Shown here piece after piece: positions 26,013 to 61,170 of a stretch of 61,206 nt of DNA. The stretch's first letter is position 1, and the number at the start of each line of letters is the position of its first letter. Under the pieces are notes generated by a model, which ran no database searches, was not told the origin of the DNA, and worked only from the letters and a program-made list of their open reading frames with translations. Made by a program: the position numbers and the translations under genes. Origin of the DNA: a virus; IMG/VR virus record IMGVR_UViG_3300031857_000181, positions 1 through 61,206 of that record; one strand, given 5' to 3'.

Positions 26013-26849
26013 TTATTTGACTAAATAATTATTTGTATTTTCACCGATAACAAAAACTAATGAATTAACTGATTCATTTTTAGTTAGTTCTATAAATTTT
26101 TCGGGTACATTAATACAACCGAAAGAATTGTTAAAAGTACCGTTATTAATATTGTTTAGAACAACATTTCTAAAAGAATTAGGTACATTAATTTCATCAA
26201 AATTATTCCCAACTAACGATACTAGATTATTCATATTTTTAATTCTGTATTCACTTTTGTAAAGACTATGTATTGCTAATGCTAAATTTTTACCATCTAA
26301 GGTATTAATATTAAAAGTATTTTCACCTTTTCCTACGAATCCGTTGCTATGAAATTTTTTTGTAATCTGATAAACCCCTTTTGGAAAAAATCTACATTGA
26401 GTTTTTGCTAAATGAGTATATACCAAACTATTAGAATAATGTCTTTTTTTACCTGTTATATCGACATACTGTTTTTTATTATCGTCCCATTTAAACCCAA
26501 TGTCAATTACGTGTTCATACCATGTCTTTAAAGAACCATCAATCTTACTTTCATTTTGTTTATCAAAACCATCGATTGTTGGTGATTTTGCAACAAAATC
26601 ACCTTTTTTATCAAAGAAGAAAATCAGATTTTCTCTTGTATCCACAATAAAAAAAGATTTATTTTGATATTTTTCAGATTTTCTAACAAGAATATATTGA
26701 TTAGTAATTCGTTCAGGCATCCCTAATTTAATCAAAGAATCTCTATTTATGTTTGGTTCAACAAAAGTTAGTTTGTTGATTACCCCATTAATTTTTATTG
26801 TATAAAAAGAGATAGATAAAACACTCAGGATTAGAAGTAATTTACTCAT
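26013..26849 (-). CDS. exported L,D-transpeptidase-like protein
   Basis: An N-terminal hydrophobic segment (SKLLLILSVLSISFYTI) acts as signal peptide or anchor. The domain matches that of 24511: FFIVDTRENLIFFFD corresponds to FIIDPRLKLVAAFD. LAIHSLY carries H194 and NSFGCINV carries C245. It would act on periplasmic peptidoglycan during infection. The neighbouring twin with a leader instead of a signal peptide suggests one form made in the cell and one delivered by the virion. Confidence 0.78.
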   Translation of the reverse strand: MSKLLLILSVLSISFYTIKINGVINKLTFVEPNINRDSLIKLGMPERITNQYILVRKSEKYQNKSFFIVDTRENLIFFFDKKGDFVAKSPTIDGFDKQNESKIDGSLKTWYEHVIDIGFKWDDNKKQYVDITGKKRHYSNSLVYTHLAKTQCRFFPKGVYQITKKFHSNGFVGKGENTFNINTLDGKNLALAIHSLYKSEYRIKNMNNLVSLVGNNFDEINVPNSFRNVVLNNINNGTFNNSFGCINVPEKFIELTKNESVNSLVFVIGENTNNYLVK

Positions 26850-57327: not shown

Positions 57328-57918
57328 ATGAGATCATTAATCGAACTTTTCATCATCGCAGTAATTGTCATCTTTTTATATGAAAAATATTTTGACAATC
57401 TTCCATCGATTCAATTTGATATGAACCCAAAAAATTCAACATCAAAAAACAATCAATCCAAAGACAATCATATTGACTTTTATATCAGACCCTTGGGTGA
57501 TGTCGATTATAGTGATTTAACGGACGCATTAAAATATATCGAAGATTTCTATGGTTATAACTGTAAAATCAAACCAGGTTTTGAAATCAATGATAATATG
57601 AAAATCGATGGTACTGATGATATTCTGAACGCAAAACAAACCATTGAAGAATTAAAAGAATATAGAAAAACAATTTTCATTGTTGACAAAAAACTGTGGT
57701 ACTTCAATGATGAACTTAAAGGTTTTACTAACGGAAAAACTATTTTGGTTCAAGGTGAAAAGGAATGGTTGAAAGAAACTGTTATTCACGAAATTGGACA
57801 TACTTTAGGTTTGAAACACTGTGATGATTTATCCTGTATCATGGCTTTGAATAACGACGCATATGAAACTGGTAAATTTTGTAATAAATGTCAAAGAAAA
57901 CTTAATCAAAATAAATAA
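57328..57918 (+). CDS. archaemetzincin-like membrane-anchored protease
   Basis: An N-terminal transmembrane helix (about 5-19) is followed by a metalloprotease domain with VIHEIGHTLGLKHC (H154, E155, H158, H164, C165), C170, M172 and CNKC (C185, C188). This is the archaemetzincin signature of a long zinc motif plus four structural cysteines with a Met-turn. The spacing between Met and the last CxxC is shorter than in textbook members. It is probably anchored in the inner membrane, orientation unknown, and expressed from a host-type promoter. Confidence 0.85.
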   Translation: MRSLIELFIIAVIVIFLYEKYFDNLPSIQFDMNPKNSTSKNNQSKDNHIDFYIRPLGDVDYSDLTDALKYIEDFYGYNCKIKPGFEINDNMKIDGTDDILNAKQTIEELKEYRKTIFIVDKKLWYFNDELKGFTNGKTILVQGEKEWLKETVIHEIGHTLGLKHCDDLSCIMALNNDAYETGKFCNKCQRKLNQNK

Positions 57919-58346: not shown

Positions 58347-59750
58347 ATGAACTTCTTAGACGCATTACAAACAGAGGATACATTTACAGAAAATGGTATG
58401 GTCACAAATTCATCAACTCTTAACGAGTGTGTGAATTTATTCTTCACCATTGGAGCAATGAGAGGACAAGACAAACAAAGATTGTTGAGTAATTTCTCAA
58501 AGGCATTTAATGAAAACCCATTGACTGCGATGCGTATTCTATTTTGGTCAAGAGATGTTCGTGGAGGTGCTGGTGAAAGACAAATATTCCGTGATATAAT
58601 CCAATTCTTAGCAGAAACGGATTCAGAAGTATTGGCAAAGAACATTAAGTTCATCCCAGAATTCGGTCGTTGGGACGATTTAACCGTCCTATTCAACACA
58701 AAAGTGAATAACGATGCGATGGCGACAATAATCCAGGGATTAGAATCCCGTAATGGATTGTGTGCAAAGTGGATGCCAAGAAAAGGGGTTATTTTTAACT
58801 CCATCAGAAAGGCTATGGGTCTGACACCAAAATCTTTACGTAAAATGTTGGTTGAACTTTCCAACACCGTAGAACAAAAGATGTGTGCAAATGAGTGGTC
58901 AAATATTGAATACTCTAAAGTACCATCTTTGGCTATGGGAAGATATTCAAAAGCGTTTCCAAAACACGATAGTCTTGGGTTTGGTCAATATATTCTCGCC
59001 CTTAAAAATGGTGAGACAAAGGTAAATGCAAGTGCAGTTTATCCTTATGATGTTGTCAAAACCTTGAACTTAGGTGGTAGAGAATTAGCTATTGAACAAT
59101 GGAAAGCTCTTCCAAATTTTATGGAAGGATGTACCGAAAGAATACTACCTGTTGTTGATGTTTCAGGATCTATGGGTTGTAGTGTTGGTGGAAACGCCAA
59201 TGTTACTTGTATGGATGTTGCAATATCATTGGGATTGTATATTTCTGAGAGAAATGAGGGTGAATTCAAAGATAGTTTTATTACTTTCTCTGAAAAACCT
59301 CAACTTCAAAAACTAAGTGGTGATTTATATAATAGATATACACAACTTAGTAGTTCTGATTGGGGTATGAGTACAAACCTCGAAAGTGTGTTTAAACTCA
59401 TCCTTCGTCAGGCAAAGAAACATAATGTCTCTCAGGATAAAATGCCAACAAAAATCCTTATCTTGTCTGATATGGAATTTAATCGGGCGACAAACCTACC
59501 TTTAACTGCAATGCAGATGATTCGTAGGGAGTATGAATCTCACGGATATACTTTACCTAGTATCGTTTATTGGAATATTCAATCAAGAAATAAGAACTTC
59601 CCAGTTCGTTTCGATGAAAAGGGAACAGCATTGATTTCTGGTTTGAGTCCTGCAATAATGAAATCAGTTTTGGTAGGAAATATTGATTCTCCGGAACATA
59701 TTATGAATATCACAATTGATTCAGATAGATACAAGATGATAGTAGTCTAA
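58347..59750 (+). CDS. TROVE-like / DUF2828 protein with von Willebrand A domain
   Basis: The N-terminal 240 residues are helical-repeat TROVE-like: FWSRDVRGGAGERQIFRDII (start 67), FIPEFGRWDDL, AKWMPRKG, INASAVYPYDVV-like KVNASAVYPYDVV. Residues about 265-467 form a von Willebrand A domain with a complete metal site start DVSGSM (D271, S273, S275). Ro60/TROVE proteins are rings that bind small Y RNAs and misfolded RNA. DUF2828 proteins look like the same architecture. Three structured RNAs and a tRNA cluster follow directly, so RNA binding is a strong inference. Confidence 0.88.
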   Translation: MNFLDALQTEDTFTENGMVTNSSTLNECVNLFFTIGAMRGQDKQRLLSNFSKAFNENPLTAMRILFWSRDVRGGAGERQIFRDIIQFLAETDSEVLAKNIKFIPEFGRWDDLTVLFNTKVNNDAMATIIQGLESRNGLCAKWMPRKGVIFNSIRKAMGLTPKSLRKMLVELSNTVEQKMCANEWSNIEYSKVPSLAMGRYSKAFPKHDSLGFGQYILALKNGETKVNASAVYPYDVVKTLNLGGRELAIEQWKALPNFMEGCTERILPVVDVSGSMGCSVGGNANVTCMDVAISLGLYISERNEGEFKDSFITFSEKPQLQKLSGDLYNRYTQLSSSDWGMSTNLESVFKLILRQAKKHNVSQDKMPTKILILSDMEFNRATNLPLTAMQMIRREYESHGYTLPSIVYWNIQSRNKNFPVRFDEKGTALISGLSPAIMKSVLVGNIDSPEHIMNITIDSDRYKMIVV

Positions 59751-59756
59751 CAATAT

Positions 59757-59897
59757 GGAAAAATTGGTTTATAAGGAATGATTCCTGCAAACCTAACTAC
59801 AATTACAATTCAATAACAAGGATAGAGTCGGTCAAACTCACTTCTCTCACAAGGAGATAAATTTTTAACCAAACCCCATTCTGAAACCAATTTTTCC
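59757..59897 (+). ncRNA. structured RNA element 1 (Y-RNA-like candidate)
   Basis: GGAAAAATTGGTTT (59757-59770) is perfectly complementary to 59884-59897 (14 bp). Then comes an asymmetric internal loop ATAAG / TG, then stem GAATG (59776-59780) with CATTC (59877-59881). Six bases later comes GCAA (59787-59790). A GAGT/ACTC hairpin lies inside (59825-59839). It starts 7 nt after the TROVE-like stop codon, so it may be processed from that mRNA. Confidence 0.75.
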
Positions 59898-59907
59898 TAT
59901 TTTTTTC

Positions 59908-59938
59908 TTGACTTAATGAAACTTTTTATCTAATTTTA
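59908..59938 (+). promoter_or_regulatory. candidate promoter for RNA elements 2 and 3
   Basis: TTG (59908-59910), 20 nt, TAATTTTA (59931-59938), like the promoter at 17518. Transcription would begin within a few bases of element 2 (59947). Confidence 0.5.
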
Positions 59939-59946
59939 CGTTATAT

Positions 59947-60015
59947 ATTGTACAAGGGATATTTACAGCAACTCCAAATCAAATTATGGAATTTTGAAAA
60001 AACTATCCTGACAAT
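59947..60015 (+). ncRNA. structured RNA element 2 (Y-RNA-like candidate)
   Basis: A 69-nt element: ATTGT (59947-59951) pairs with ACAAT (60011-60015). The internal loop is ACAAG / TG. GGATA (59957-59961) pairs with TATCC (60004-60008). Six bases later comes GCAA (59968-59971). The second stem differs from elements 1 and 3 by two compensating base-pair changes. TCCA/TGGA can pair in the apical part. Confidence 0.75.
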
Positions 60016-60019
60016 TTAA

Positions 60020-60088
60020 TGGTTATAAAGAATGAGTTCAGCAAGCTAAACAAAATTGCAACTTTGGAAAAAAAATCATTCTGAACCA
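60020..60088 (+). ncRNA. structured RNA element 3 (Y-RNA-like candidate)
   Basis: Also 69 nt: TGGTT (60020-60024) pairs with AACCA (60084-60088). The internal loop is ATAAA / TG. GAATG (60030-60034) pairs with CATTC (60077-60081), extendable by one A-T pair. Six bases later comes GCAA (60041-60044). It aligns base for base with element 2 without gaps in the conserved parts, and lies 4 nt after it. Confidence 0.75.
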
Positions 60089-60318: not shown

Positions 60319-60391
60319 TCCCCCTTGGTATAAAGGTTTATTACATCAGATTTTGATTCTGAAAATGGTGGTTCAATTCCATCAGGGGGAA
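60319..60391 (+). tRNA. tRNA-Gln (TTG)
   Basis: Acceptor TCCCCCT/AGGGGGA, D-stem GTA/TAC, anticodon stem TCAGA/TCTGA with loop TTTTGAT (anticodon TTG), T-arm GGTGG-TTCAATT-CCATC. CCA is not encoded. Confidence 0.88.
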
Positions 60392-60397
60392 CAATCT

Positions 60398-60421
60398 AAA
60401 GTGGTAGAATTTGACCACTTT
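60398..60421. other. hairpin after tRNA-Gln
   Basis: AAAGTGGT (60398-60405) pairs with ACCACTTT (60414-60421), then an A-run. On the minus strand it would read as a terminator; on the plus strand it may protect the tRNA precursor end. Confidence 0.5.
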
Positions 60422-60442
60422 AAAAAAAAACTTACAAAGGTG

Positions 60443-60473
60443 TTTGGAAATTAAAAAACAAATTGTATCTTTG
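60443..60473 (+). promoter_or_regulatory. consensus Bacteroidota promoter
   Basis: TTTG (60443-60446), 19 nt, TATCTTTG (60466-60473). Transcription would start at about 60478-60480, at the first base of the stem described next. Confidence 0.8.
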
Positions 60474-60477
60474 TTGA

Positions 60478-60543
60478 AGAGTAAGGAAAGGTCGTAGGTA
60501 GCATTGTCCACAACTAGCCTTAAACGTGGTGGATACTTACTCT
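60478..60543 (+). ncRNA. structured 5' leader RNA
   Basis: AGAGTAAG (60479-60486) pairs with CTTACTCT (60536-60543). Inside, AAGG can pair with CCTT, and TCCAC is complementary to GTGGA near the 3' arm, which would form a pseudoknot. It occupies the very start of the transcript that carries the 55-aa gene and the tRNAs. It could be a riboswitch-like leader or a stable small RNA. Confidence 0.5.
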
Positions 60544-60573
60544 AAATTTTTAAACAATAAAATTTAAATAACT

Positions 60574-60741
60574 ATGAAAAAATTGAACGAACTTAAAGAA
60601 ATGGGTGTTAAAGTAGTAATACTTAATGGATTCAAAGAAAGTTTGTCTTATGTAATGTCTTTATCCAAAGTAATTTATAATGGTGAGACAATCAAGAGTT
60701 ATGATGGTTATAGTGAATATCATTGTTTTGAGACTGAATAA
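60574..60741 (+). CDS. small protein, 55 aa
   Basis: The frame MKKLNELKEMGVKVVILNGF... ends ...YSEYHCFETE. A plausible compact fold of helix-strand type. It lies between the structured leader and the tRNA cluster, 7 nt before tRNA-Phe, so the mRNA is probably released by tRNA processing. Function unknown. Confidence 0.65.
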   Translation: MKKLNELKEMGVKVVILNGFKESLSYVMSLSKVIYNGETIKSYDGYSEYHCFETE

Positions 60742-60748
60742 TTTTTAT

Positions 60749-60824
60749 GGTGATGTTGCCAAGTTGGTCAAGGCGAACGACTGAAAATCGTTTAATATTG
60801 GTTCGATTCCAATCATCACCACCA
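60749..60824 (+). tRNA. tRNA-Phe (GAA)
   Basis: Acceptor GGTGATG/CATCACC, D-stem GCC/GGC, anticodon stem AACGA/TCGTT with loop CTGAAAA, T-arm ATTGG-TTCGATT-CCAAT, ACCA encoded at the end. Confidence 0.93.
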
Positions 60825-60833
60825 AACTATATG

Positions 60834-60906
60834 TGGTATGTACCCCAATTGGTAGGGGACATCATTGTGAATGATGAATGTGTGGGTTCGAGTCCCATCA
60901 TACCAA
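60834..60906 (+). tRNA. tRNA-His (GTG)
   Basis: Acceptor TGGTATG/CATACCA with a G just before it (60833), as tRNA-His needs; anticodon stem CATCA/TGATG with loop TTGTGAA; T-arm GTGGG-TTCGAGT-CCCAT. The base opposite the extra G is A, not the usual C. Confidence 0.9.
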
Positions 60907-60916
60907 CAAACAATAT

Positions 60917-60999
60917 GGAAAGGGACCGAATGGACGAGGGCACTATCTTGAAAATAGCCGGGCTTAATCGCTTTGGGGGTTCGATTCCCCCTCTTTCCG
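60917..60999 (+). tRNA. tRNA-Ser (TGA)
   Basis: Acceptor GGAAAGG/TCTTTCC with one G-T pair, anticodon loop CTTGAAA (TGA), and a long variable arm (about 60956-60975) as in class II tRNAs. T-arm GGGGG-TTCGATT-CCCCC. Confidence 0.88.
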
Positions 61000-61009
61000 C
61001 CCTTTAAAT

Positions 61010-61081
61010 GTCTCTATGGTGAAAAGGCAATCACACTTGACTGTTAATCAAGTATTCCTGGTTCGAGTCCAGGTGGGGACG
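61010..61081 (+). tRNA. tRNA-Asn (GTT)
   Basis: Acceptor GTCTCTA/TGGGGAC, anticodon stem CTTGA/TCAAG with loop CTGTTAA, T-arm with TTCGAGT loop. It may be linked to the Asp/Asn-type synthetase relative at 40212. Confidence 0.92.
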
Positions 61082-61089
61082 CAAACAAT

Positions 61090-61164
61090 GACCCTGTAGC
61101 TTAGTTGGTTTAAAGCACAATACTTTTAATATTGGGATCGTGGGTTCAAGTCCCACCAGGGTCA
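61090..61164 (+). tRNA. tRNA-Lys (TTT)
   Basis: Acceptor GACCCTG/CAGGGTC, anticodon stem CAATA/TATTG with loop CTTTTAA, T-arm GTGGG-TTCAAGT-CCCAC. Confidence 0.92.
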
Positions 61165-61170
61165 CAAATT

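What the first reader, a model, noticed from the sequence alone, without database searches (positions are those of the whole stretch)
59757..60088. Three tandem Y-RNA-like structured RNAs directly downstream of a TROVE-like/DUF2828 gene
Elements at 59757-59897, 59947-60015 and 60020-60088 share one architecture: closing stem, asymmetric internal loop (ATAAG, ACAAG, ATAAA on the 5' side; TG on the 3' side), a 5-bp stem, six bases, then GCAA. The second stem is GAATG:CATTC in two elements and GGATA:TATCC in the third, two compensating changes. The closing stems also differ but stay paired. Elements 2 and 3 are both exactly 69 nt. TROVE proteins bind small Y RNAs closed by an end-to-end stem with a loop or bulge. 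I know of no described RNA partner for the DUF2828 branch, so this may be a new phage Y-RNA family.
Basis: partly seen in the sequence, partly recalled or inferred. Interest (0 to 1): 0.95.

Follow-up and report, generated by a model that had tools for sequence, protein, structure and literature searches.

The report
Y-RNA-like partners of phage Ro proteins
Next to a phage gene for a ring-shaped RNA-binding protein related to the human Ro60 autoantigen lie small RNAs of a family that recurs beside the same gene in many phages and in bacterial chromosomes, and whose signature matches the 'Class I RNAs' of social amoebae, long thought unique to those amoebae.

Summary
The three elements are real and sit where stated. 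The neighbouring DUF2828 protein is predicted to have the Ro60 fold (Z 20.4 over 408 residues). The RNA core is AA - 6-bp stem of free sequence - about 3 nt - CAGCAA - variable insert - stem - UG(U). Such modules cluster beside DUF2828 genes. In viral relatives 120 lie within 500 nt downstream on the gene's strand, against 4 on the other strand. In bacterial chromosomes 119 lie within 500 nt upstream, against 4. A covariance model built only from bacterial modules finds exactly elements 2 and 3 in the 61-kb window. It hits 11 of 11 phages with DUF2828 and 0 of 7 without. Among 147 bacterial genomes it hits 6 of 8 with DUF2828 and 2 of 139 without (p = 6e-8). Some inserts are tRNA-like, including permuted tRNAs as in bacterial YrlA Y RNAs. 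The Rfam model of Dictyostelium Class I RNA, below its cut-off, hits the same modules; 27 of 42 hits lie within 700 nt of DUF2828. I read these as Y-RNA-like partners of DUF2828 Ro proteins. Phage and bacterial Y RNAs were known; new are this signature, its breadth and the Class I link. Binding and transcription are untested.

The parts
58347..59750 (+). DUF2828 / Ro60-fold protein gene (467 aa; helical ring domain plus vWA domain with DVSGSM MIDAS motif)
   Evidence: Pfam DUF2828 3e-34 and DUF7788 1e-50; AlphaFold model pLDDT 83; Foldseek Ro60 1yvr E 2.4e-9; Z 20.4 to Ro60 2i91
59757..59897 (+). Element 1: module with 14-bp closing stem, stem GAATG:CATTC, CUGCAA, and a ~90-nt insert carrying its own hairpins
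   Evidence: fold z -2.95; outer stems invariant, inner helix with compensating changes in 8 relatives
59908..59938 (+). Promoter-like TTG-N20-TAATTTTA ahead of elements 2 and 3, conserved in relatives
   Evidence: pattern scan; columns almost invariant in alignment A3
59947..60015 (+). Element 2: Class-I/Y-RNA-like module, core 59955-60012, CAGCAA at 59966
   Evidence: model R1 E 0.0076; RF01414 21.1 bits
60020..60088 (+). Element 3: Class-I/Y-RNA-like module, core 60028-60085, CAGCAA at 60039
   Evidence: model R1 E 0.0014; RF01414 16.7 bits
60254..60286 (+). Intrinsic-terminator-like hairpin downstream of the array
60319..61165 (+). tRNA gene cluster (Gln, Phe, His, Asn, Lys) following the array; such modules elsewhere also lie in tRNA clusters

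Best explanation
The elements are small noncoding RNAs that work as Y-RNA-like partners of the DUF2828 Ro-fold protein encoded just upstream. Shown: the protein's predicted Ro60 fold; the RNA core (AA-stem-NNN-CAGCAA ... stem-UG) with a stem free to vary in sequence; strand-specific clustering beside the gene; co-occurrence across genomes; tRNA-like inserts in some members. Inferred: the ring protein binds the closed stem and the single-stranded CAGCAA next to it, so one recognition handle can carry many inserts (short A/U-rich loops, permuted or acceptor-less tRNA mimics, large folded domains in Bacteroidota phages). By analogy with Ro60 and Y RNA, the RNA would gate the ring or tether it to other RNA enzymes, steering handling (decay, protection or repair) of structured RNA, tRNAs above all, during infection. 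Confidence is 0.85 that they are the protein's RNA partners and about 0.4 for the tRNA-handling role.
For: Ro60 fold. Same-strand clustering near the gene: viral 120 vs 4 (other strand) vs 2 (reversed); bacterial 119 vs 4 vs 0. Near-gene CAGCAA has a helix of 6 bp or more ending in UG in 74% of bacterial and 83% of phage cases, against 0-3% with the 3' side shuffled and 13-16% of other CAGCAA. 60 distinct modules have 55 different 6-bp stems, with all four Watson-Crick pairs at five of six positions; the 3-nt gap in 48 of 60 and the AA upstream were not selected for. The bacterial-only model finds elements 2 and 3, 11/11 vs 0/7 phages and 6/8 vs 2/139 genomes, p 6e-8, with no hit in TROVE loci. 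tRNA calls in 20 of 230 doubled modules vs 0 of 230 shuffled, 11 of them only when permuted. Isolated modules lie among phage tRNA genes.
Against: No binding or transcript data for these RNAs. In Listeria phage CKA15 the most transcribed unannotated region (26,236-26,727; PMC12282133) does not hold the modules, which lie at about 25,2xx-25,6xx. Pfam TROVE does not match the protein. Rfam YrlA is never reached at its cut-off. Window elements 2 and 3 are not tRNA-like. Two DUF2828 genomes gave no model hit and two genomes without it did.
Confidence: 0.85

Rival explanations
1. The modules are processing or spacer elements of phage tRNA operons and have no tie to the DUF2828 protein.
For: Distal modules sit a few bases ahead of tRNA genes in several phages; some inserts are made of tRNA parts; the window's array precedes a tRNA cluster.
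Against: Most viral and bacterial modules lie beside DUF2828, not tRNA genes. Phages lacking DUF2828, T4 among them, gave no model hit. Co-occurrence with DUF2828 in bacterial genomes, p 6e-8.
Confidence: 0.07
2. They are cis-acting 3'-UTR or leader elements that control the DUF2828 mRNA (feedback by the protein) and not free small RNAs.
For: They abut the gene, downstream in most viral loci and upstream in bacteria.
Against: Several tandem copies, a promoter-like sequence between elements 1 and 2, position both up- and downstream of the gene, and copies far away in tRNA clusters. Cis and trans roles do not exclude each other.
Confidence: 0.08
3. The likeness to Dictyostelium Class I RNA is a coincidence of a short motif in A/U-rich sequence.
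For: All RF01414 hits are below the cut-off; chance hits occur (36.8 bits in a genome without DUF2828; a T4 coding region); spacing between stem and CAGCAA is one base shorter than in the Rfam consensus.
Against: 27 of 42 hits lie within 700 nt of DUF2828 on the same strand, expected fraction 0.006; among all Rfam families it is the best non-tRNA match for the modules or just behind YrlA. Shared features besides CAGCAA: AA before the stem, CUG(U) after it, 6-bp free stem, about 56-60 nt.
Confidence: 0.4

Closest known systems
Bacterial Y RNAs, YrlA (Rfam RF02553; Chen et al. 2014, cited through PMC12282133)
   Same: Encoded beside a Ro60-fold protein; closed by a stem; some carry a circularly permuted tRNA-like domain; one phage locus matches YrlA at 34.5 bits.
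   Different: Below the YrlA cut-off (69 bits) everywhere. The partner is DUF2828 and not Pfam TROVE. A CAGCAA signature next to the stem, which I do not recall from YrlA. Many members, including window elements 2 and 3, have no tRNA-like part.
Dictyostelium Class I RNA (Rfam RF01414; Kjellin et al. 2021, PMC7919456)
   Same: AA ahead of a 6-bp free-sequence stem, an 11-nt motif containing CAGCAA directly after the 5' strand, CUGU at the 3' end, about 56-60 nt, many loci with different sequences.
   Different: Below the Rfam cut-off (best phage hit 32 of 41.5 bits); the stem-motif spacing is usually 9, not 10 nt; eukaryotic promoter element (DUSE); the reported partner is the RRM protein Rnp1A, with no Ro protein described; tRNA-like inserts are not described there.
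Ro60 / Rsr protein (1yvr, 2i91, 2nvo; phage phiLo Ro60 9l5y)
   Same: Predicted full-length fold: helical-repeat ring plus vWA domain with MIDAS.
   Different: 10-16% identity; own Pfam families DUF2828 and DUF7788; ring size and RNA surfaces not tested.
Abundant unannotated RNAs near the Rsr-like gene of Listeria phage CKA15 (PMC12282133)
   Same: Same protein family; the authors guessed Y RNAs; three CAGCAA modules lie right before that gene.
   Different: The most abundant region they name (26,236-26,727) does not contain these modules.

Membership tests
Bacterial Y RNA / YrlA | Gene next to a Ro60-fold protein gene | tested here: met
   DUF2828 protein has the Ro60 fold; modules adjacent
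Bacterial Y RNA / YrlA | Stem closing the two ends of the RNA, with an adjoining loop or bulge | tested here: met
Bacterial Y RNA / YrlA | tRNA-like domain in at least one Y RNA of the species | tested here: inconclusive
   Found in 20 of 230 modules of the family, 0 of 230 shuffled; not found in window elements 2 and 3; element 1 relatives have only a T-arm-like hairpin
Bacterial Y RNA / YrlA | Score at or above the Rfam RF02553 cut-off (69 bits) | tested here: not met
   Best 45.9 bits, and such hits can also span neighbouring tRNA genes
Bacterial Y RNA / YrlA | RNA is bound by the Ro protein | not testable with these tools
   needs pull-down or binding assay
Dictyostelium Class I RNA | AA-G start, 6-bp stem of variable sequence, CUG(U) end | tested here: met
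   one search compared with PMC7919456; G opens the stem in only part of the modules
Dictyostelium Class I RNA | 11-nt motif with T3, C6, C9, A10, A11 (CCUUACAGCAA) | tested here: met
   ATTTACAGCAA in element 2; element 3 (GAGTTCAGCAA) lacks T3
Dictyostelium Class I RNA | Score at or above the Rfam RF01414 cut-off (41.5 bits) | tested here: not met
   best 32 bits in phages, 21.1 in the window
Dictyostelium Class I RNA | DUSE promoter and Rnp1A partner | not testable with these tools
   eukaryotic features
TROVE/Ro60 protein | Ro60 fold: helical ring plus vWA domain with MIDAS | tested here: met
   DxSxS motif invariant
TROVE/Ro60 protein | Match to Pfam TROVE PF05731 | tested here: not met
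   Window protein hits only DUF2828 and DUF7788; 9 of 10 DUF2828 genomes hold no TROVE match

The most novel reading that the evidence does not exclude
DUF2828 Ro proteins and CAGCAA RNAs form one ancient ribonucleoprotein lineage spanning phages, bacteria and amoebae, so that the long-orphan Class I RNAs of Dictyostelium, one of which is needed for normal multicellular development, are Y-RNA-like partners of a DUF2828 Ro-fold protein.
Probability: 0.45. Interest if true: 0.95.

Novelty: new variant of a known kind. Interest (0 to 1): 0.82.

Why it matters
It gives the large, uncharacterised DUF2828 family (682 of 50,697 phage records, plus bacterial chromosomes) an RNA partner defined by a simple searchable signature. 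It makes the phage Ro particle testable in laboratory phages (felixounavirus relatives on E. coli K-12, mycobacteriophages on M. smegmatis). It also offers a concrete protein class and mechanism for the Dictyostelium Class I RNAs, whose mode of action has been open since 2004 and which were held to be unique to social amoebae.

Tried and rejected
Folding energy of elements 2 and 3 alone: not significant, so not used as proof. Rfam at gathering cut-offs: only tRNAs and a tmRNA. The idea that CKA15's most abundant RNA is this module: rejected, the region holds no CAGCAA module. The strongest bacterial RF01414 hit (36.8 bits): read as chance, no DUF2828 match in that genome and no hit with the bacterial model. 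The T4 hit: inside coding genes. A 6-bp helix within 450 nt as a test: too permissive, chance is about one half, so replaced by helix plus UG with a shuffled 3' side. YrlA hits inside tRNA clusters, including window 61030-61149, mostly bridge two neighbouring tRNAs and are not counted; 10 of 14 control genomes ring too. Literature: Chen 2014, Sim and Wolin 2018 and Sim 2020 are not held, so how far they covered DUF2828 loci could not be checked; no held paper links Class I RNA with Ro. Presence of DUF2828 in dictyostelids could not be tested; no eukaryote genomes are held.

Full report
1. What is there. They follow a 467-aa gene at 58347-59750 whose product matches Pfam DUF2828 (3e-34) and DUF7788 (1e-50) and PHROG 850 'RNA-binding protein' (5.5e-152). 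An AlphaFold model made from 26 relatives (pLDDT 83.2, pTM 0.83) matches Ro60 over nearly its whole length: Foldseek 1yvr E 2.4e-9; Z 20.4 with 408 residues to 2i91, the best entry without the Ro60 fold having Z 11.0. The vWA MIDAS motif DVSGSM is conserved. Nine of ten genomes with DUF2828 hold no Pfam TROVE match.

2. Recurrence. I fetched 80 viral and 80 prokaryotic-genome loci and ten named phage records, plus CKA15. Scanning for CAGCAA with a 6-bp partner gave, within 500 nt downstream of the viral genes, 120 hits on the gene's strand, 4 on the other and 2 in the reversed sequence. Within 500 nt upstream of the bacterial genes the numbers are 119, 4 and 0. Many loci are related, so these counts are not independent events. 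Because a 6-bp partner is easy to find by chance, I tested the stem separately. Near bacterial genes 74% of CAGCAA sites have a helix of 6 bp or more ending in UG, against 3% after shuffling the 3' side and 13% for CAGCAA elsewhere; for named phages 83%, 0% and 16%. For the viral set the figure is 28% against 7%, in part because many viral modules have long inserts or end in AGG. Sixty distinct modules from 40 loci have 55 different stems. Unselected features agree: 3 nt between stem and CAGCAA in 48 of 60, A at 70-76% just before the stem, U in 55% after UG.

3. Independent model test. A covariance model (R1) was built from 35 modules of prokaryotic-genome loci only. In the window, both strands, it finds two matches down to E = 5: element 3 (E 0.0014) and element 2 (E 0.0076). 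In 39 other loci it hits DUF2828-linked and tRNA-linked modules and none of the TROVE loci or the chance loci included. In named phages it hits 11 of 11 with DUF2828 and 0 of 7 without. In 147 genomes of one bacterial order it hits 6 of the 8 that have DUF2828 and 2 of 139 that do not, Fisher p = 6e-8. The hits in those six lie about 0.1-2 kb from the gene, and no training sequence occurs in those loci.

4. Relation to Y RNAs. Some inserts are tRNA-like. Doubling each module, which turns a circularly permuted tRNA into a normal one, lets ARAGORN call a tRNA in 20 of 230 modules and in 0 of 230 shuffled ones; 11 need the permutation (T arm, acceptor, loop, acceptor, D arm, the YrlA order), while 9 do not, mostly tRNA-like pieces whose acceptor is replaced by the module stem. 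Examples: mycobacteriophage Lewan (L085), SUSP1 (L084), Cronobacter phage S13 (L090), Blautia (L137). The Rfam YrlA model matches a module in a jumbo-phage tRNA cluster at 34.5 bits, E 7.5e-6, but never reaches its cut-off. In Bacteroidota-type phages the second module encloses a domain of about 230 nt; the whole ~300-nt RNA has 11 of 28 predicted pairs with compensating changes.

5. Relation to Dictyostelium Class I RNA. Among 4227 Rfam families, the best match to elements 2 and 3 is RF01414, below its cut-off; apart from one ordinary tRNA the same holds for Aeromonas phage LAh_9, whose upstream array gives four hits at E 0.0036-0.14. Searched over 40 phage records, 27 of 42 hits with E up to 0.05 lie within 700 nt of DUF2828 on its strand, expected fraction 0.0057, p about 2e-50 (records are partly related). 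Most of the inspected distal hits are modules in tRNA clusters. The published features of Class I RNA (AAG start, 6-bp variable stem, 11-nt motif with T3 C6 C9 A10 A11, CUGU end, about 60 nt; PMC7919456) are those of the phage modules, apart from a spacing one base shorter. The authors searched one bacterium (Myxococcus) and, as far as the text shows, no phages, and concluded that the class is unique to dictyostelids; they name an RRM protein, not a Ro protein, as partner. Caution: RF01414 gives chance hits, one of 36.8 bits in a genome without DUF2828 and one in a T4 coding region.

6. Mechanism. Best reading: the closed stem plus CAGCAA is the handle by which the DUF2828 ring holds the RNA, and the insert is the variable working part (tRNA mimic, small hairpin or large domain). 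Shown: fold, signature, position, co-occurrence, tRNA-like inserts. Inferred: binding, gating or tethering, and a role with structured RNA or tRNAs. Supporting circumstance: modules among phage tRNA genes, RNA ligase genes nearby in two phages, and detection of the CKA15 protein in purified virions (20 peptides, 57% coverage; PMC12282133), which raises the possibility that the particle is delivered at infection.

7. Novelty. Y RNAs near Ro60 in bacteria and phages are known as a kind (Chen et al. 2014, through PMC12282133; original not held). New here, as far as the held literature shows: the CAGCAA signature, its tie to DUF2828 across phages and bacteria, and its agreement with the Class I signature. 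Hence 'new variant of a known kind', with high interest.

Noticed in passing
window 60478-60543: A ~66-nt, almost invariant structured RNA (AGAGTAAGGAAAGGTCGTAGGTAGCA...GTGGATACTTACTCT) with a TTG-N19-TATCTTTG promoter-like sequence ahead; present in relatives L003-L015 in changing neighbourhoods near tRNAs; no credible Rfam match.
   Followed up: partly
L016 5241-5700, L023 6417-6900, L077 6372-6900: In another phage group the region after DUF2828 holds a long, highly conserved, apparently structured RNA of about 500 nt beginning with the same module; no Rfam match at cut-off in L016 or L077.
   Followed up: no
L205 425-1500 (minus strand): One jumbo-phage tRNA cluster holds several modules: a Class-I-like one ahead of tRNA-Ala, one with a permuted leucine-like tRNA, and one matching YrlA at 34.5 bits.
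   Followed up: partly
L087 3737-4228 (CKA15 26,236-26,727, minus strand): The most abundant CKA15 unannotated transcript comes from a region without CAGCAA modules: a separate unknown RNA.
   Followed up: no
L139 genome (G035): One bacterial chromosome carries two DUF2828 genes, each with its own upstream modules.
   Followed up: partly
window 57328-57918: Predicted metalloprotease (zincin, HEIGHTLGLKHC motif; Peptidase_M54 4e-10) two genes ahead of DUF2828.
   Followed up: no
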